This document shows positions 28,328 to 35,056 of a stretch of 55,686 nt of DNA, in pieces. Source of the DNA: Planctomyces sp. SH-PL62. GTDB taxonomy: Bacteria > Planctomycetota > Planctomycetia > Planctomycetales > Planctomycetaceae. The notes below the pieces were generated by a model. The model searched no databases. It had not been told where the DNA came from and was given only the letters and a program-made list of their open reading frames with translations. The stretch is taken from positions 1-55,686 of the forward strand of contig CAMDEA010000033.1 of the NCBI GenBank assembly GCA_945893045.1, written 5' to 3'. Each line of letters begins with the position of its first letter. The stretch's first letter is position 1. A program made the position numbers and the translations under genes.

Positions 28328-29773
28328 ATGGACTTGCGCGGTGAAGGTTCCATTCTGTTGGTCTCGTGTTACGAGTTGGGGCACCAACCGCTCGGTGTCG
28401 CCATGCCGGTGGGATTCCTGCGACGCGCGGGTTACTTGCCGGTCGCGATCGACATTGCAGTCGAGAAGTTTGACTCGGATATTGCGGCGCGGGCGCGGTT
28501 CGTTGGGATCTCCGTCCCAATGCACACGGCGATGCGGCTGGGCGTGCGGGTCATCGAGCGGCTGCGAGAAATCAATCCGAACTGCCACATCTGCTGCTAC
28601 GGACTCTATGCCGCATTGAACTCCGAGTACCTGCTGGCTCACGGCGCGGACTCGTGTATCGGCGGCGAATACGAAGGGCCGCTGGTCGCGCTGGTCGAGT
28701 CGCTGGAGTCAGAGGCCGATGCTCAAGTCGCGGGCGTGATCCGGCGTCAGCAACCGGCGGGACCGAATCTCGTGCGGTTGTCGTTTGCGATCCCCGAACG
28801 AGACGCGCTGCCAACTCTGGATAAGTACGCCCAATTGGAACACAACGGCCAGCGTCGCACGTCGGGTTACGTCGAAGCCAGTCGCGGCTGTTTGCATTTG
28901 TGTACTCACTGCCCGATTCCGCCGGTGTATGAAGGCCGGTTCTTCACCGTGCCACCGGACGTCGTCCTGGAAGACATTCGCCGCCAGGTGCGCGCGGGAG
29001 CCACTCACATCACGTTTGGCGATCCAGACTTTTTGAACGGCCCCAAGCACTCACTGCGCGTGGTCCGCGCAATGCACGCAGAGTTTCCGACGCTCACCTT
29101 CGACTTCACGGCCAAGGTCGAGCATCTCTTGCATCGCGGCGAGGACTTACCGGAATTCGCCGCTGCCGGCTGCTTGTTCATCATCTCGGCCGTCGAATCA
29201 CTCAGCGAAAAAGTGCTGCGGATTTTCGACAAACAACATACGCGGGACGACGTGACCGCCGCTCTGAATATCGTGCGGGATGCGGGCATCGCGCTGCGAC
29301 CCACATGGGTCGTCTTCACGCCATGGACGACGCGCGAAGACTACTGCGAAGTGCTCGACTTCATTGAAACCAACGGCCTGATCGATCACGTTGATCCAGT
29401 GCAGTACGCGATCCGGCTGCTGATCCCGCCCGGCTCTTGGTTGGCGGAACATCCGGAGACTCTGCCGCATCGTGGGCCGCTGGACGAGGCCGCGTTCAGC
29501 TACCGCTGGACGCATCCCGATCCGCGCATGGATCAGTTGCAGAAAGCAGTCGCACGGTTGGTGGAAGAAGCCACTCGCGCGGGTGAAGACACCGCGACCA
29601 CTTTTTACCGCGTGCTGGATTTGGCTCATGAGCGACAACCTCCGGTCATCGTTCGCTCGCTGCCGCTGGATCGCCGGAAGGCTCCGAGGCTGACCGAATC
29701 TTGGTTCTGCTGAGCGGAGCCCACCGAGGGTCAGTTGGACCCTCTCAGCAACAGCACGACGAATATGTTTTAA
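28328..29773 (+). CDS. Radical SAM selenoprotein with C-U-A-E-P tail (UGA recoded)
   Basis: The product is 481 residues if the UGA at 29711-29713 is read as selenocysteine. An N-terminal B12-binding-like domain is followed by a radical SAM core with GCLHLCTHC (Cys 188, 192, 195; CxxxCxxC) for the 4Fe-4S cluster. At the apparent end the frame reads ESWFC-U-AEPTEG... and continues 19 codons after the U to TAA at 29771-29773. C-U-A-E-P is exactly the tail that gives its name to the CUAEP/CCAEP-tail radical SAM (seleno)protein family. A hairpin immediately after the UGA (stem GAGGGTC/GACCCTC, loop AGUUG) fits a SECIS. GGAGGA precedes the ATG. The substrate is unknown; Cys461-Sec462 may be a redox or metal-binding pair. 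It opens the UGA-rich cluster. Confidence 0.93.
29709..29749 (+). promoter_or_regulatory. Putative bacterial SECIS of the CUAEP radical SAM gene
   Basis: GCTGAG (29709-29714, containing the UGA) pairs with CTCAGC (29744-29749), and GAGGGTC (29726-29732) pairs with GACCCTC (29738-29744), sharing one base; apical loop AGUUG. The loop starts about 20 nt after the UGA, inside the usual 16-37 nt window, and contains the GU typical of SelB recognition. Confidence 0.8.
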
Positions 29774-29777
29774 GTTC

Positions 29778-29940
29778 CTGGAGTGCTGCGGCTCGACGCA
29801 GCCCTCCATTCGATTGAAATAGCGGCTCTCAAAGTCCAGAAAACTTCACTGCGAAGTCGGCTGAACAACCGCGACTGTTCTGACAATCAACATCTTCATT
29901 CCAACAGAATGGAGGGCTGCGTCGAGCCGCAGCTCTCCAG
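29778..29940. repeat. REPIN-like palindrome with GGAG signature
   Basis: CTGGAGTGCTGCGGCTCGAC (arm 29778-29811) and an inverted copy (29907-29940) match over 34 nt with one mismatch; 95 nt separate them. Each half is GGAG plus hairpin GCTGCG-GCTCGA-CGCAGC. GGAG is the alternative REP tetranucleotide to GTAG. The right end abuts the AGGAG ribosome site of the DUF169 gene. Confidence 0.8.
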
Positions 29941-29949
29941 GAGTTTTTC

Positions 29950-30636
29950 ATGAGCGCGGCAGCACGGTTGATTGAGTTATTGGCGTTGCGGTCACAGCCC
30001 GTGGCGATCAAGTTTCAGGACGCGGCTCCGGAGGGCGTGCCGCGGATCAAGGCAGCCGCGCTGGCCGGTTGCACGTATTGGAAATCAGCGGCTGACGGAC
30101 ACACCTTCTTTACGGAAGCGTCAGACCATTACGGCTGTCCGATCGGCTCGCACACGCACGGCATCGACTTGCCGGAACAAACGGCGAAGGAGCTGGAGGG
30201 GCTAGTCGGCACGATGGTGCAGCTCGAATACATCAACATGTCGGAAGTCCCCGGCATTCCGCGGCGCGGGGAGAAGTTCGGCGTCGCCATCTACTCGCCG
30301 CTGGCCGCTGCCACGTTCGCTCCCGACGTCGTCCTCGTGGCTGGCAACGCGAAACAGATGATGTTGTTGGCTGAAGCGGCGCACTTGGCGGGACTCGATT
30401 GTGACTCGTCGATGGTTGGCCGCCCCACCTGCGCGGCGATCCCAGCAGTGATGCGATCCGGACGCACCGCCACGAACTTGGGTTGCATTGGCAATCGCGT
30501 TTACACCGAACTGCCGGACGACGAACTGTACTTCGCGATCGCCGGTTTGCAGCTCGAACCGATCGTCGAAAAACTGGTGACCATCGCGCACGCCAATGGC
30601 GAGTTAGAAAAGTTCCACCGTGGACGCGTGGCTTAA
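29950..30636 (+). CDS. DUF169 family protein
   Basis: The product is 228 residues, MSAAARLIELLALRSQPVAI. Signature stretches are GCTYWKSAADGHTFFTEASDHYGCPIG, VLVAGNAKQMMLLAEAAHLAG and GRPTCAAIPAVMRSGRTATNLGCIGNR, matching DUF169 proteins. Several conserved-looking Cys (in GCTYW, YGCPIG, RPTCAAIP, LGCIGNR) could bind a metal or cofactor; the family function is unknown. All Cys are normal codons here. AGGAG lies 7 nt before the ATG. It follows the CUAEP radical SAM gene directly and precedes the UU protein, so a joint role with the selenoproteins is an inference from position only. Confidence 0.85.
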   Translation: MSAAARLIELLALRSQPVAIKFQDAAPEGVPRIKAAALAGCTYWKSAADGHTFFTEASDHYGCPIGSHTHGIDLPEQTAKELEGLVGTMVQLEYINMSEVPGIPRRGEKFGVAIYSPLAAATFAPDVVLVAGNAKQMMLLAEAAHLAGLDCDSSMVGRPTCAAIPAVMRSGRTATNLGCIGNRVYTELPDDELYFAIAGLQLEPIVEKLVTIAHANGELEKFHRGRVA

Positions 30637-30638
30637 GT

Positions 30639-30736
30639 TCAACGTAGCCGTCATCGCTCCGCGTGACGAGCCGAACGCTTCACCGACGCGGATTGGTGGT
30701 TCGGCTCGTCACGCGGAGCGATGACGGCTACGTTGA
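30639..30736. repeat. REPIN-like palindrome, perfect 38-bp arms
   Basis: Arms 30639-30676 (TCAACGTAGCCGTCATCGCT...) and 30699-30736 are exact inverse copies with a 22-nt spacer. GTAG (30644-30647) opens each half, followed by a CGTCA...TGACG hairpin. It lies between the DUF169 gene and the UU selenoprotein gene. Confidence 0.9.
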
Positions 30737-30771
30737 CTCAATTAACTTTCAAAACCAAAGGAGACCAAACC

Positions 30772-31392
30772 ATGTCCGTTGATCGTTGGCTCGCAGCTTT
30801 CGCGTGTTCGCTATTGATGGCGTCCACCGCTAACGCCCAGGTGCTCAGCGGCGTGATGACCGTGACCGGGGCCGAAATGCACTGATGAGCCGGTGTGGCG
30901 CGAGATGCCACAGCACGTCTGTATGACGTGGACGCGGAAACGATTGCTTTCAAACGATTCAACAAGACCGGCAAGTACGACATTGGGACAGTGACGTTTC
31001 GAGCCAAGCCCGGAAAACTGATCGACCTCGACAAGCTGCACGAGAGCGTTTGGGCCACTCGGCTTTCTGGCGGAACCAGCAGCGGGTTGGTGAGCCTCGA
31101 AGTGACCGTGGCGGGAACGATCGTTGTTGGCGAAAAGGAGACGACTCTCAAAGTTTCCGGTGCGGAGCCGGAGTTCGTGCTGGCGCAAAACTCAGAGGCC
31201 GAGTTCAAGACTGCTTTCGACGAATTGAAAGCTTCCTTGGCACGGAGCGAGAAAGTCACCAGCGTCAGCGGGCGACTCGATGGTTGGTCCGGTCGGTGGC
31301 CCGAAATGTTGAAGAAACTCCCGGCCAAACCACGACGGATTCTGGTGACTCGTTTTGAAGTGATGAAGTACTCGGAAACGAAAACTCCATGA
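30772..31392 (+). CDS. Secreted HMA-like protein with tandem selenocysteine (UU)
   Basis: The product is 206 residues if UGA UGA at 30883-30888 is read as Sec38-Sec39. A signal peptide (MSVDRWLAAFACSLLMASTA...NAQ) precedes MTVTGAEMHUUAGVARDATA, which resembles a heavy-metal-associated loop (MxCxxC) with UU at the metal site, then strands such as GTVTFRAKPGKLIDLDKLHE. The frame continues open to TGA 31392; the ORF is interrupted only by the UGA pair. AAGGAG lies 7 nt before the ATG. A SECIS-like hairpin (CACGTC/GACGTG, loop UGUAU) lies about 32 nt after the second UGA. The stop overlaps the next ATG (ATGA). The domain match is moderate; the UU reading rests on signal peptide, ribosome site and hairpin. 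Confidence 0.82.
30914..30930 (+). promoter_or_regulatory. Putative SECIS of the UU protein
   Basis: CACGTC (30914-30919) pairs with GACGTG (30925-30930) around loop UGUAU. The loop begins about 32 nt after the second UGA and 35 nt after the first. A nearer hairpin (TGTGGC/GCCACA, 30894-30912) is an alternative with a GC-rich loop. Confidence 0.6.
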
Positions 31393-31721
31393 AGCCGATC
31401 AACGAACAGAAACGAACGACAGGGAATCGAGCCGTCAGCGCATTGGGTGCGCTGTTCGGCACGGCGGCGATCGTGCCCAACTGAACTGCCGCAGCGATTC
31501 TTTCCTTGCTCGGGTTAGCAGGGAGTTCAGCCGCAACGGTCGTCAGTTGGTTGTCGCCGGTTTTCATCGGGCTGACGGCGGTGCTCTTGGGCCGCGCGCA
31601 CTATGTGCTTTACGTTCTCAAGCGCGGCAACCGCGCGTCGACCGTCATCACCTGGCTGACGACGTTTTTAGTCATCGGCTTTTGGACATGGAAATGGATG
31701 AAGTCAACCGGCACCTGCTAG
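31389..31721 (+). CDS. MerT-like small membrane selenoprotein (single UGA)
   Basis: The product is 110 residues reading through UGA 31482-31484 as Sec32: SALGALFGTAAIVPNU, then TAAAILSLLGLAGSS. About three hydrophobic segments follow (VVSWLSPVFIGLTAVLLG, RASTVITWLTTFLVIGFWTW). The layout resembles MerT/MerC-type transporters, where a metal-binding Cys pair sits in the first transmembrane helix (the usual CC-P segment); here the position holds N-U. It ends STGTC. The ATG overlaps the stop of the UU gene (ATGA), so translation is probably coupled, and its end overlaps the decarboxylase start. A SECIS-like hairpin with loop CGGGUU follows about 26 nt after the UGA. MerT homology is an inference from topology and motif position. 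Confidence 0.78.
31504..31522 (+). promoter_or_regulatory. Putative SECIS of the MerT-like gene
   Basis: CCTTGCT (31504-31510) pairs with AGCAGG (31517-31522) with one bulged U; apical loop CGGGUU, about 26 nt after the UGA. The GGGU loop resembles those after both UGAs of the MerTP-like gene. Confidence 0.6.
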
Positions 31722-32923
31722 AAATCGTTCGCCGCTACGGCACGCCGACCTACGCCTTCGACATGCGTCGATTGCGCGAGCAGGTGGCGAAGTTGCGCAA
31801 ACATTTGCCGCCTGCGGTCGAGATTCTGTATTCGCTGAAGGCGAACGCATCGCTCGGCATTTGCGATGTCCTGTCGAGTTGCGGAATCGGTGCTGATGTG
31901 GCTTCGGCGGGCGAACTGGCGACGGCCGTGGAAGCCGGCTTTCCGTCTCCGCGGATCTTCGTGGCTGGTCCGTTCAAACTTCCGGAAACACTCGCACAAC
32001 TTCGCGACTTGCCCGCCGCCGTCATCTCGGTGGATTCGCCGAGCGAATTGCAAATGCTGGCCGAGCATCGTTTGTCCAACCCAATCGTGTTGCGATTGCG
32101 TCCCGACTTTGGTTCGCAAGCGGTTGTCGCGGCGGGACACGAGTCGCGGTTTGGCTTTGTCGGTGAAGATGTCTCGTCGTGCCGTGTGCTGGTGAACTCA
32201 CGAGCGGTCAACGTCATCGGCTTCCATGTTTTTTCCGGCTCGCAATATCTCAACGCCGAAGGCATCGTCGCGCATTTGCGTGGCGCGTTGGCGATCTCTC
32301 AACGAGCGGCTGACGATTTGGGAATCGCGCCCGCGCTGCTGAATCTCGGCGGCGGCTTCGGCATTCCTTACGCATCGACGGCCGGCGAGTTGGATCTGGG
32401 AACCATCGGCCAAGAATTGGCGATGATTGCCAAGCGAATGCCGGCCACGCGGATTGTGCTTGAACTGGGCCGATACTTGGTGGCTCAGGCCGGTTGGTAT
32501 CTGACGTCTGTGCTCGGTCATCAAACCTTTCAAGGCCGTGCGGCCGTGGTGGTCGATGGCGGAACTCACCAGCGCGCCGACATGTGCGGGCTTTGTCTGC
32601 GCACAAAAGCCAGCCCGCCTCTGGCTTTGAACGCGCAGCCCTCGTCGCTCACACCCACCGATGTGCTGGGTTGCTTGAGCCTGCCAGCCGATGTGCTTGC
32701 GGAGTCCAGTCTGTTGCCCCGTCTCGAACCGGGCAACGTGTTGGCATTCGGCAACGCCGGTGCGTATGGCCTGTGGTCTTCGCCAGCCATGTTCCACGGC
32801 AGTCCTCTGCCAGCCGAGGTCGCTTTCGACGGATCAGAAATTCAATTGATGCGTGAGCGGCAACCGGCGCGAAGTATTCTGAACGATCAACGACATGTGA
32901 ATGTGCGAGGTCATGATGCGTGA
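31688..32923 (+). CDS. Fold-III PLP-dependent decarboxylase (LysA/ODC superfamily)
   Basis: The product is about 411 residues. The TIM-barrel contains EILYSLKANASLGICDVLSS with the PLP-binding Lys, then GADVASAGEL, IVLRLRPDFG, LNLGGGFGIPYAS and ELGRYLVAQAGWYL; the C-terminal beta domain has NVLAFGNAGAYG. These match diaminopimelate/ornithine decarboxylases and the group found with exosortase or natural-product clusters. The substrate cannot be assigned. ATG 31688 (MEMDEVNRHLLEIVRRYGTP) lies 34 nt before the end of the MerT-like gene, so the two genes overlap in different frames. No clear ribosome site is seen, consistent with coupling. Its stop overlaps the ATGs of the FGE-like gene. Confidence 0.88.
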   Translation: MEMDEVNRHLLEIVRRYGTPTYAFDMRRLREQVAKLRKHLPPAVEILYSLKANASLGICDVLSSCGIGADVASAGELATAVEAGFPSPRIFVAGPFKLPETLAQLRDLPAAVISVDSPSELQMLAEHRLSNPIVLRLRPDFGSQAVVAAGHESRFGFVGEDVSSCRVLVNSRAVNVIGFHVFSGSQYLNAEGIVAHLRGALAISQRAADDLGIAPALLNLGGGFGIPYASTAGELDLGTIGQELAMIAKRMPATRIVLELGRYLVAQAGWYLTSVLGHQTFQGRAAVVVDGGTHQRADMCGLCLRTKASPPLALNAQPSSLTPTDVLGCLSLPADVLAESSLLPRLEPGNVLAFGNAGAYGLWSSPAMFHGSPLPAEVAFDGSEIQLMRERQPARSILNDQRHVNVRGHDA

Positions 32924-33875
32924 GCTTGTCTGGCGATTTGTCAAATCCGTAGCCACGTTCGCCAGAACGTGGGCAAGCGTGAGAAAGACCCACGTTCTGG
33001 CGAACGTGGCTACGATCGTGATGGTCGCGACTTGGTGCCGATCAACCAGCGCGGACGAACCGGCCGCCGCGCCGGCCAAGATTGAAGTCCTGACGAATTC
33101 GATCGGCATGAAGCTGGCCCGCATCCCGGCGGGGAAGTTTGTGATGGGATCGCCTCGTACTGAGCCGGAACGAGTCCGCGGAGAATCGCAGCACGATGTG
33201 ACGATCACTCAGCCGTTTTACCTGGGTGTGTACGAAGTGACTCAAGCCGAGTTCACCAAAATCATGGGTGGCCAGATTCAACCGACGTTCGGCAGCAACA
33301 ACGGTGGCGGCCCGGATCATCCGATGGAAAATATGGAGTGGAGTCACGCGGCTGATTTTTGCCGCAAGCTGTCGGCGCAACCGGATGAACTGAGTGCTGG
33401 CCGCAAGTATCGCCTGCCGACGGAAGCTCAATGGGAATACGCCTGCCGAGCCGGAACCGTCACGGCGTTTCATGGCGGCGCATCGCTGTCATCGCTCAAG
33501 GCCAACTGCAACGGCAAGACACCGTATGCTGATGCGGAGCCGGGGCCGTATTTGCGCCGCACGGCCAAGGTCGGTTCGTATCCGCCCAATGCCTTCAGTC
33601 TGTACGACATGCACGGCAACGTCTCCGAATGGTGTGCCGACTGGTACGATCCGGAAGCCTATGAAGAGAATCCGCAGACAGACCCGCGAGGTCCGCCGGT
33701 GGGGACGTTTCCGGATGACTTCGGCAATTTTTTTCTAGTGGTCCGCGGCGGCTCGTGGCTGGATGATGCGCGAGCGTGCCGCTCGGCGTACCGGCAGAAA
33801 GCGATGCACAAGAACCGTTATCCTTGGATTGGCTTTCGGGTCGCGTGTGACGTCGAAGCGAAACAGCCCCAATAG
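32916..33875 (+). CDS. Secreted SUMF1/FGE-like protein, 5' end overlaps a REPIN
   Basis: The product is about 319 residues. The domain begins NSIGMKLARIPAGKFVMGSP and continues YLGVYEVTQAEFTKIMGG, YRLPTEAQWEYACRAG, YDMHGNVSEWCADWYDPEAY and VRGGSWLDDARACRSAYRQK, ending WIGFRVACD. This is the formylglycine-generating-enzyme fold; only one of the two catalytic Cys of true FGE is present (ACRSAYR), so classical sulfatase activation is doubtful. It is not SenA-like: no DinB domain. The first 40 residues are encoded partly by the palindrome at 32949-33013, and the resulting HVLANVATIVMVATWC may serve as the hydrophobic signal core. GAGG precedes ATG 32916; ATG 33021, after the palindrome, is the alternative start. 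Confidence 0.85.
   Translation: MRELVWRFVKSVATFARTWASVRKTHVLANVATIVMVATWCRSTSADEPAAAPAKIEVLTNSIGMKLARIPAGKFVMGSPRTEPERVRGESQHDVTITQPFYLGVYEVTQAEFTKIMGGQIQPTFGSNNGGGPDHPMENMEWSHAADFCRKLSAQPDELSAGRKYRLPTEAQWEYACRAGTVTAFHGGASLSSLKANCNGKTPYADAEPGPYLRRTAKVGSYPPNAFSLYDMHGNVSEWCADWYDPEAYEENPQTDPRGPPVGTFPDDFGNFFLVVRGGSWLDDARACRSAYRQKAMHKNRYPWIGFRVACDVEAKQPQ
32949..33013. repeat. REPIN-like palindrome (GTAGCCACG type) overlapping a CDS
   Basis: Perfect 25-bp arms GTAGCCACGTTCGCCAGAAC... at 32949-32973 and 32989-33013. Each half is GTAG plus hairpin CCACGTTC-GCCA-GAACGTGG. The arms are identical to those at 37113-37177 and close to those at 39685-39751. The element lies within the 5' reading frame of the FGE-like gene. 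Confidence 0.9.
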
Positions 33876-33876
33876 C

Positions 33877-33955
33877 GTAGGCGAACCGGAGGGCGTCAGC
33901 CCCCGGACGACATGGCAATCGCAACTGTCCGGGGGCTGACGCCCTCCGGCTCGCC
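33877..33955. repeat. REPIN-like palindrome (GTAGGCGAACC type)
   Basis: GTAG (33877-33880) opens the left half; arms 33880-33908 and 33927-33955 match over 29 nt with one mismatch. The right end lacks CTAC. Hairpin: CCGGAGGGC...GCCCCCGG. It separates the FGE-like gene from the UxxU lipoprotein gene. Confidence 0.85.
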
Positions 33956-33974: not shown

Positions 33975-34310
33975 ATGCTCGCAACAGTGCGACTGATTGG
34001 ATTGGCCGTCTTATTGACGGCGTCAATTTCAGGCTGCGGCCGTTCGCCCGCGCCCGAACCATCGACGAAAGCCGGCATCGAAACCGTGACGTTTCATGTC
34101 ACCGACATGGGCAAGCGATTGGCATTGATGTGAGAGGATTGACCCAATCGGGTCAAAGAGGCCCTGGTAGGGCTTCCCGGCGTTGAGTTAGTCCGCGATG
34201 AATGGGACCACGACCTGTTGAAGGTCACGTTTGACAGAGAGAAGATAACGGTGGAAAAGCTGCGTGAGATCATCAAAAAAGAAGGCTTTGAAGCGGACGT
34301 TAAGAAGTAG
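33975..34310 (+). CDS. HMA-domain lipoprotein with UxxU in place of CxxC
   Basis: The product is 111 residues reading two UGAs (34131-34133 and 34140-34142) as Sec53 and Sec56. A lipoprotein signal MLATVRLIGLAVLLTASISG-C has lipobox SISGC. After a linker, the frame gives GKRLALMUEDUPNRVKEALV, then LPGVELVRDEWD, LLKVTFDREKITVEKLREII and KKEGFEADVKK. This is a textbook heavy-metal-associated (HMA/MerP/CopZ) ferredoxin-like domain in which both metal-binding Cys of MxCxxC are UGA. The match continues in one frame to TAG 34310. GGAG at 33960-33963 suits ATG 33975 or GTG 33972. A hairpin with loop GGU follows 24 nt after the second UGA. It probably binds a soft metal outside the inner membrane. 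Confidence 0.92.
34159..34175 (+). promoter_or_regulatory. Putative SECIS of the UxxU lipoprotein
   Basis: AGGCCCT (34159-34165) pairs with AGGGCTT (34169-34175), one G-U pair, around GGU. The loop lies about 24 nt after the second UGA and 33 nt after the first, so one element could serve both. Confidence 0.75.
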
Positions 34311-34339: not shown

Positions 34340-35056
34340 ATGACGAGCGAATTAGAACGCCGATCGTTGCCCGTCGCCAATTGCTGAACGACGACGGCGA
34401 AGACGTTGCCGGGCGCAACGACGACACCCTCGAAACTTTCTTCCAATCGCGTTGAGTTGATCGCCAAGATCGGCACAATCGTCTCGGCGCTCATGGCATC
34501 GAGTTGCTGCTGGTTGCCAGTCCTGTTGTTGGCGGTCGGCGTCTCCGGCGCGGGAATCGCTTCGGCCTTGGAAGCCTATCGGCCGCTCTTCATGGTCGTG
34601 ACGTTCAGCTTCCTCGGCATGGCCTTTTACTTCACGTACCGACCACGGCACGCGGCTAACGCAGCGGTCGAATGTTGCTCACCGTCAACCGAGGCCGTCG
34701 GCAAGCGACGGTTCAACATGATGGCGTTCAACAAAGTCATGCTGTGGGCCGTCACGCTGATGGCCGTCGTGTTTCTCTTCTGTCCGCAGTTCGTGACCGG
34801 GTTGATCGGTACCGGCAGCGACAAGATCACCGCGGACATGACGCGCACCGAGGTCAAGATCGTCGGCATGACGTGTTATGGCTGAGCGGCCAAGGCCGCT
34901 GCGGCCCTGCATCAAGCACCGGGTGTGCTTGCCGTCCAAGTCGATTATGAAAAACGCCTCGCCACGATCGGCACACAGCGCGACAAAGTTGTGCCGCGCG
35001 ACGAACTGCTCAAGTCGCTCAAGTCGATCGGCTACGACGGCCAATTCGTGGATTAG
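34340..35056 (+). CDS. MerTP-like transporter fusion with two UGA (CU and CxxU)
   Basis: The product is 238 residues reading UGA 34385-34387 as Sec16 and UGA 34883-34885 as Sec182. The N-terminal tail has VANCU. A MerT-like membrane part follows: IGTIVSALMASSCCWLPVLL (Cys pair in the first transmembrane helix), EAYRPLFMVVTFSFLGMAFY, an AVECCSP loop and a third helix VMLWAVTLMAVVFLF. The C-terminus is an HMA domain with KIVGMTCYGUAAKAAAALHQ, where the second Cys of CxxC is UGA, then APGVLAVQVDYEKRLATIG. MerTP proteins move Hg(II) into the cytoplasm. AGGAG lies 7 nt before ATG. SECIS-like hairpins follow both UGAs (loops CGGGC and CGGGU). The CxxU reading is very strong; the N-terminal U is less certain. 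Confidence 0.91.
34404..34420 (+). promoter_or_regulatory. Putative SECIS after the first UGA of the MerTP-like gene
   Basis: CGTTGC (34404-34409) pairs with GCAACG (34415-34420); apical loop CGGGC, starting about 23 nt after the UGA. Confidence 0.65.
34913..34931 (+). promoter_or_regulatory. Putative SECIS after the second UGA of the MerTP-like gene
   Basis: CAAGCAC (34913-34919) pairs perfectly with GTGCTTG (34925-34931); apical loop CGGGU, about 35 nt after the UGA, near the far end of the accepted range. Confidence 0.7.

What the first reader, a model, noticed from the sequence alone, without database searches (positions are those of the whole stretch)
33975..34310. HMA domain whose CxxC is replaced by UxxU, on a lipoprotein
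Reading two UGAs nine bases apart as Sec gives LALMUEDUPNRVKEALVG, with the rest of a complete HMA fold after it. Both metal-binding Cys, and only those, are UGA. A lipobox (SISGC) places it outside the inner membrane. A hairpin with loop GGU lies 24 nt after the second UGA. Two Sec in one metal site is exceptional.
Basis: partly seen in the sequence, partly recalled or inferred. Interest (0 to 1): 0.95.

Follow-up and report, generated by a model that had tools for sequence, protein, structure and literature searches.

The report
Two-selenium metal-binding lipoprotein beside MerT
In a likely planctomycete genome both metal-gripping positions of a MerP-like protein are UGA codons, very likely read as selenocysteine, and the predicted lipoprotein would catch a soft metal such as mercury and pass it to the neighbouring MerT-type transporter, which itself likely carries selenocysteine.

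Summary
Two in-frame UGAs (34131-34133, 34140-34142) stand at the two metal-ligand positions of an HMA domain on a predicted lipoprotein. Four close MAG relatives keep both, with purifying selection beyond them. In 392 genomes of the phylum, 39 more loci (34 genomes) encode relatives with two to four in-frame TGAs; of 34 motifs read, 31 are UxxU. A CUG opening a hairpin loop stands at one offset from the second UGA in 25 of 25 loci. The genome has SelA, SelB, SelD and a tRNA-Sec match. Distant relatives have CxxC. The next gene is a MerT-HMA fusion with two more conserved UGAs (CU, CxxU). Distant members are HMA-thioredoxin fusions, some with three or four UGAs, and many lie near MerT, MerR or CsoR genes. 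Best reading: a selenium version of MerP that would bind Hg(II) or another soft metal through two selenolates and hand it to MerT; metal and direction are inferred. A UxxU metal-binding family (NF041115) is already catalogued, but this protein scores far below its cut-off: a new variant of a known kind.

The parts
33975..34310 (+). Predicted lipoprotein with a single HMA domain, UxxU in place of CxxC (111 aa, stop TAG)
34131..34133 (+). In-frame UGA 1, residue 53, first metal-ligand position
   Evidence: Cys in the distant relatives of alignment A4
34140..34142 (+). In-frame UGA 2, residue 56, second metal-ligand position
   Evidence: Cys in the distant relatives of alignment A4
34140..34155 (+). 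Hairpin 1, starting at UGA 2 (UGACCC-AAUC-GGGUCA)
34158..34176 (+). Hairpin 2, SECIS-like, 8 bp, loop GGU
34340..35056 (+). MerT-HMA fusion (238 aa) with UGA at codon 16 (CU) and codon 182 (CxxU)
   Evidence: PF02411 55.2 bits over 32.9 on its first 182 aa
34385..34387 (+). In-frame UGA of the CU pair near the MerT N terminus
   Evidence: kept in 5 of 5 close loci, window included; least certain of the four UGAs
34883..34885 (+). In-frame UGA of CxxU in the C-terminal HMA of the MerT fusion
   Evidence: kept in 5 of 5 close loci, window included

Best explanation
This is very likely a selenium version of MerP: a predicted membrane-anchored lipoprotein whose HMA domain would hold a soft metal, most likely Hg(II), between two likely selenocysteines placed at in-frame UGA codons, and would hand it to the MerT-HMA protein encoded next to it. 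Shown: the two UGAs, the HMA match, the hairpins, purifying selection beyond the UGAs, recurrence of the UGA pair in relatives across the phylum, the Sec machinery genes, and the MerT neighbour with its own two in-frame UGAs. Inferred: that Sec is really inserted, the lipid anchor, the metal, and the direction. Proposed path: periplasmic UxxU lipoprotein, then the C-terminal CxxU HMA of MerT, then the Cys pair in MerT helix 1, then the cytoplasmic Cys pair, then the N-terminal CU (MerT topology recalled, not tested). In the thioredoxin-fused relatives the thioredoxin domain would keep the selenolates reduced.
For: UGA pair at the ligand positions and HMA fold. Window against each of four close relatives after UGA 2: dN 0.09-0.12, dS 0.42-0.59. 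Of the 40 best rows in 392 genomes (E <= 5.7e-38), 39 have two to four in-frame TGAs. Synonymous-codon randomisation of the 39 nt from UGA 2: mean z -2.45, 12 of 25 at p <= 0.01, against mean z -0.36 and 0 of 8 for CxxC HMA controls. The CUG opening the hairpin-2 loop is at one offset in 24 of 24 relatives and the window, including the UxxxU type, whose residues and first hairpin differ. tRNA-Sec 55 bits (cut-off 47), SelB 342 (242), SelA 522 (268), SelD 289 (125). SelB strong in 32 of the 35 genomes with the family, against 235 of 392 overall over the cut-off (Fisher p 2e-5, relatedness ignored). MerT within 1.1 kb on the same strand at 11 of 40 loci. MerR- or CsoR-type genes near 12 of 20 distant loci; six of the nine MerR-like ones were scanned and all score best with mercury MerR; one aligns three Cys with two MerR structures.
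Against: No MerA over the cut-off in the window's own genome (89% complete), so Hg uptake would lack its usual end point. No MerR or CsoR gene among 10 window neighbours scanned. All six MerR-like proteins stay below the MerR cut-off, and the one CsoR-like protein scanned resembles copper RicR. CopZ models score like MerP on the window protein. 29 of 40 loci have no MerT hit within 1.5 kb. Weaker hits in the phylum include exported-looking HMA proteins with plain CxxC (L036, L039, L044, L051), so Sec is not the only solution there. One locus (L102) folds no better than codon-randomised versions. Between the MerT CU and its first helix (codons 17-37) dN is not clearly below dS. No Se or metal measurement exists.
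Confidence: 0.66

Rival explanations
1. The UxxU is mainly a redox centre (selenol/diselenide) that works with thioredoxin, and metal binding is secondary; the short window form would be the substrate-binding half of such a reductase.
For: All 18 distant members in alignment A1 are HMA-thioredoxin fusions, some with a further UGA at the thioredoxin site (GPGUxxC, GDDUxxC); two Sec in a redox pair also occur in Prx-like proteins and ferredoxin-thioredoxin reductase (passages).
Against: The window form and its four close relatives have no thioredoxin domain; the HMA fold and the MerT, MerR and CsoR neighbours point to metal.
Confidence: 0.2
2. Same protein and relay, but the metal is Cu(I)/Ag(I) or another soft metal, or an organometal, rather than Hg(II).
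For: CopZ models score like MerP models; some MerT partners carry an Fe-S CopZ domain and a CsoR-like neighbour resembles RicR; no MerA over the cut-off in the genome.
Against: MerT is the most specific neighbour found; six scanned MerR-like neighbours score best with mercury MerR, and one keeps three aligned Cys.
Confidence: 0.28
3. The UGAs are true stops: the gene makes a 52-aa stub or is a decayed pseudogene.
For: Database proteins end there (P0002-P0005); UGA is the commonest stop in the window, 15 of 24 genes counted.
Against: Purifying selection beyond the UGAs, the same UGAs in other genomes, conserved hairpins, Sec machinery.
Confidence: 0.02
4. UGA is read as some other residue throughout this genome (code change).
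For: None beyond the open frame.
Against: 15 of 24 long window genes end in UGA; SelA, SelB, SelD and a tRNA-Sec match are present.
Confidence: 0.01

Closest known systems
NF041115 UxxU_metal_bind, metal-binding (seleno)protein (listed as 'putative mercuric reductase', UxxU, 2 Sec, in tables of PMC13188914 and PMC9312934; passages seen)
   Same: Small metal-binding domain with UxxU; it aligns over the window HMA
   Different: Window protein 33.1 bits against a cut-off of 95; 0 of 23 members of alignment A1 pass (best 81.2); predicted lipoprotein with six extra residues before the UxxU, beside a UGA-bearing MerT
MerP (TIGR02052; PDB 1osd, 1afi)
   Same: Fold (TM 0.93 by target), ligand positions, likely export, MerT next door
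   Different: UGA for Cys, lipobox-like start, 33.7 bits against a cut-off of 92.55, no MerA over cut-off in the genome
NF045683 MerT_CopZ_Se, MerT/CopZ fusion-like heavy metal transport selenoprotein, and NF033556 MerTP_fusion
   Same: MerT fused to an HMA (NF045683 also with Sec); resemble the downstream gene
   Different: Downstream gene 60.2 bits against 375 and 102.3 against 180; it has CU and CxxU
Mercuric transport protein MerP selenoproteins of the GOS survey (PMC2398784, Table 2 passage: 2 sequences in 1 sample, 0 Cys homologs)
   Same: Sec-containing MerP was already reported
   Different: No motif, sequence or context in the passages seen; could not be compared

Membership tests
PF00403 HMA | Score over the gathering cut-off | tested here: met
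   34.3 against 24.8 bits
PF00403 HMA | beta-alpha-beta-beta-alpha-beta fold with the ligand pair at helix 1 | tested here: met
   model with Cys for Sec
Selenoprotein (bacterial) | In-frame UGA aligned with Cys in homologues | tested here: met
   columns 53 and 56 invariant in A4; CxxC in the 12 distant proteins read across the site; no close Cys form found
Selenoprotein (bacterial) | SECIS-like hairpin just after the UGA | tested here: met
   no Rfam match; SelB binding itself not testable
Selenoprotein (bacterial) | Sec machinery in the genome | tested here: met
Selenoprotein (bacterial) | Se in the protein | not testable with these tools
   needs mass spectrometry
NF041115 UxxU_metal_bind | Curated score cut-off 95 bits | tested here: not met
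   33.1 bits
NF041115 UxxU_metal_bind | UxxU at the ligand positions | tested here: met
MerP (TIGR02052) | Curated score cut-off 92.55 bits | tested here: not met
   33.7 bits
MerP (TIGR02052) | Linked to MerT | tested here: met
   MerT hit at 34460-34774
MerP (TIGR02052) | Part of a mer system with MerA | tested here: not met
   no MerA over cut-off in an 89% complete genome
MerT (PF02411), downstream gene | Gathering cut-off | tested here: met
   55.2 against 32.9 bits

The most novel reading that the evidence does not exclude
Planctomycetota run a selenium-based periplasmic metal-handling system: HMA sites built from two selenocysteines, up to four selenocysteines in one HMA-thioredoxin protein, and a MerT carrier with its own CU and CxxU, forming a selenolate relay for mercury that gene callers have been cutting off at the UGAs.
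Probability: 0.4. Interest if true: 0.88.

Novelty: new variant of a known kind. Interest (0 to 1): 0.74.

Why it matters
Sec is usually explained as a redox catalyst. A family in which UGA stands at both ligands of a metal site, in 31 of 34 loci read, suggests Sec chosen for metal affinity, and makes that directly testable: swap U for C and measure Hg(II) and Cu(I) binding. Proteins with three or four predicted Sec would be unusual (a passage of the 2026 review PMC13188914 says that a small subset of families has 2-3). It also shows a blind spot in annotation: the database pieces of these genes that I read end or begin at the UGAs.

Tried and rejected
Rfam at gathering thresholds found nothing in the window, so the SECIS case rests on comparative tests. 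ARAGORN did not call the tRNA-Sec, probably because the sequence held stops at the end of the match; the Rfam model did (55 bits; in 5 of 14 control genomes something also passed that cut-off), and its UCA anticodon was read by eye. MerA: the best hit, on C36, looks like SthA by its active-site stretch (motif recalled). A search for close Cys forms of the window type returned four pieces that end at UGA 1. Neighbour scans of 20 proteins at loci mostly without MerT gave no common partner. In one search the two UxxxU loci (L095, L104) were read out of register; they were folded again but not re-tested, and the means include them. In one search the MerT cluster joins L101 (CopZ part only) and L104 by other sequence, so MerT counts come. 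The shuffles do not remove codon constraint; one search does. In single-sequence folds hairpin 2 is not always the best structure (L041). Rows left out of the motif count: eleven weaker hits read that are other proteins (L030, L031, L035, L036, L039, L042, L043, L044, L046, L048, L051; CxxC, CxxU or no HMA), and G320. Haft and Tolstoy 2025, Haft and Gwadz 2023 and a 2007 Olavius paper were not held, so a description there is not excluded.

Full report
WHAT IS THERE. From ATG 33975 (or GTG 33972, after GGAGAG) a frame runs to TAG 34308-34310, broken only by TGA at 34131-34133 and 34140-34142. With TGA as U it is a 111-aa protein: a signal-like start with SISGC, a short linker, and an HMA domain (PF00403 34.3 bits, cut-off 24.8) whose two ligand positions, 53 and 56, are the two UGAs. 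An AlphaFold model from 15 sequences (mean pLDDT 74.9; 72-94 by blocks over residues 31-110) has the HMA strand-helix order, and the best solved match is MerP 1osd (TM 0.93 by target, 31% identity). That the host is a planctomycete is inferred from record titles of relatives; the genome itself is unnamed.

WHY THE UGAs ARE VERY LIKELY SEC. (a) Close relatives: the search for related loci gave five MAG records; the four that span the site (L052-L055, 74-78% identity) keep both UGAs. Between the window and each of them dN is 0.09-0.12 and dS 0.42-0.59 after the second UGA, so the part beyond the stops is under selection as protein. (b) Wider family: a search of 392 genomes of the phylum with the 23-row alignment gave 40 rows at E <= 5.7e-38. 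39 of them (34 genomes) have two to four in-frame TGAs; the fortieth (G320) begins after the site, and its frame carries a CxxR HMA in front. The window's own row follows; the next rows match mainly the thioredoxin part. I read the motif at 34 loci, window and L052-L055 included: 31 UxxU, 2 UxxxU (L028, L034), 1 UxxC (L038); ten loci were counted by the tool only. Eleven weaker hits are other proteins, among them exported-looking HMA proteins with CxxC. (c) Distant Cys forms: of 49 database proteins found with the profile I read 17; the 12 that reach across the site (P0044 starts at it) have CxxC, the other five are pieces that begin after it. The ten of them aligned in A4 lack the six residues before the window motif. 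(d) RNA: a hairpin starts at UGA 2 itself, and a second, GAGGCCCU-GGU-AGGGCUUC, has its loop at position 27 counted from UGA 2. The CUG that opens this loop is at the same offset in 24 of 24 related loci and the window, including the UxxxU type, where residues and first hairpin differ; the loop is mostly GGA or GGU, once GUC, once GUU. On 22 distinct sequences 89.3% of pair cells are standard, against 32-56% when slid, with two-sided changes at three pairs in 12 cells (1 of 500 shuffles reach that). (e) Machinery: tRNA-Sec, SelA, SelB, SelD all over their cut-offs. Of the 35 genomes with the family, 32 have a SelB match at E <= 4.4e-80; the three others (G305, G146, G131) are 64-85% complete. 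Overall 235 of 392 pass the cut-off (Fisher p 2e-5, relatedness ignored). (f) UGA is otherwise a stop here: 15 of 24 long window genes end in it.

THE PARTNER. The next gene (34340-35056, AGGAG in front) is MerT (PF02411 55.2 bits over 32.9) fused to an HMA. It has UGA at codon 16 (ANCU) and codon 182 (GMTCYGU, i.e. CxxU); both are kept in 5 of 5 close loci, window included. The two-gene unit thus has four UGAs. The N-terminal one is least certain: a TTG start beyond it would avoid it, and codons 17-37 show no clear excess of dS over dN; the ribosome site and the conserved ANCU argue for it.

THE FAMILY. The 18 distant members of alignment A1 continue into a thioredoxin domain, WCxxC or with a third UGA (GPGUxxC, GDDUxxC). 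L029, L049 and L131 have a fourth (IPDTU), and L047 has a second HMA with UxxxU. A model of one Cys-form fusion (P0041, mean pLDDT 89.1) shows an HMA-like then a thioredoxin-like order of elements (its fold was not searched). A MerT hit lies within 1.1 kb on the same strand at 11 of 40 loci, where a rough chance estimate gives 0.003. MerR-type genes lie near nine and CsoR-type genes near four of 20 distant loci, 12 loci in all. Six MerR-like proteins scanned all score best with mercury MerR (105.9-139.5 bits) but below its 150.85 cut-off; the one CsoR-like protein scanned scores best with RicR, below cut-off. One MerR-like protein aligns three Cys with structures 4ua1 and 5crl. Some MerT partners carry an Fe-S CopZ domain.

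HOW IT MOST LIKELY WORKS. A predicted lipoprotein outside the inner membrane would catch a soft metal between two selenolates and give it to the HMA and Cys pairs of MerT. Hg(II) is favoured by MerT and by the MerR-like neighbours of relatives; Cu(I)/Ag(I) is not excluded, since the genome has no MerA over the cut-off and the HMA scores equally with copper chaperones. In the fused relatives thioredoxin would keep the pair reduced. These steps are inferred.

KNOWN OR NEW. Table passages of PMC13188914 and PMC9312934 list a UxxU metal-binding protein (NF041115 in the former), a MerT with Sec, and other double-Sec proteins; Table 2 of PMC2398784 (passage) lists Sec-containing MerP, 2 sequences. 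The window protein fails the NF041115 cut-off (33.1 against 95), as do all 23 members of A1, the best having 81.2 bits. I found no description of the lipoprotein or the HMA-thioredoxin form in nine searches of the open library (listings, with passages or abstracts of six papers); three relevant papers were not held. Hence: new variant of a known kind.

Noticed in passing
window 33880-33955: A 29-nt inverted repeat (97%) between the upstream FGE-like gene and the lipoprotein start; its core arm occurs at 24 places in the genome with up to one mismatch (0 for the reversed control), so it looks like a REP-like repeat.
   Followed up: partly
window 28328-33875: Radical SAM/B12, DUF169, decarboxylase and FGE-sulfatase-like genes upstream; the decarboxylase- and FGE-position ORFs recur in the same order before the lipoprotein in 5 of 5 close loci, window included.
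   Followed up: partly
L028, L034 (L104, L095): A UxxxU variant of the HMA site, one residue longer than UxxU, in HMA-thioredoxin lipoproteins; Cys relatives have CxxC.
   Followed up: partly
L029, L049, L131, L047: Single predicted proteins with four in-frame UGAs.
   Followed up: partly
L102, L103: MerT-bearing frames next to the lipoprotein gene that end in ...GMT before a stop, suggesting Sec in the MerT-fused HMA of distant relatives as well.
   Followed up: no
L046 (G278): A lipoprotein-like HMA with CxxU (GCPFU), apparently a separate Sec-HMA type.
   Followed up: no
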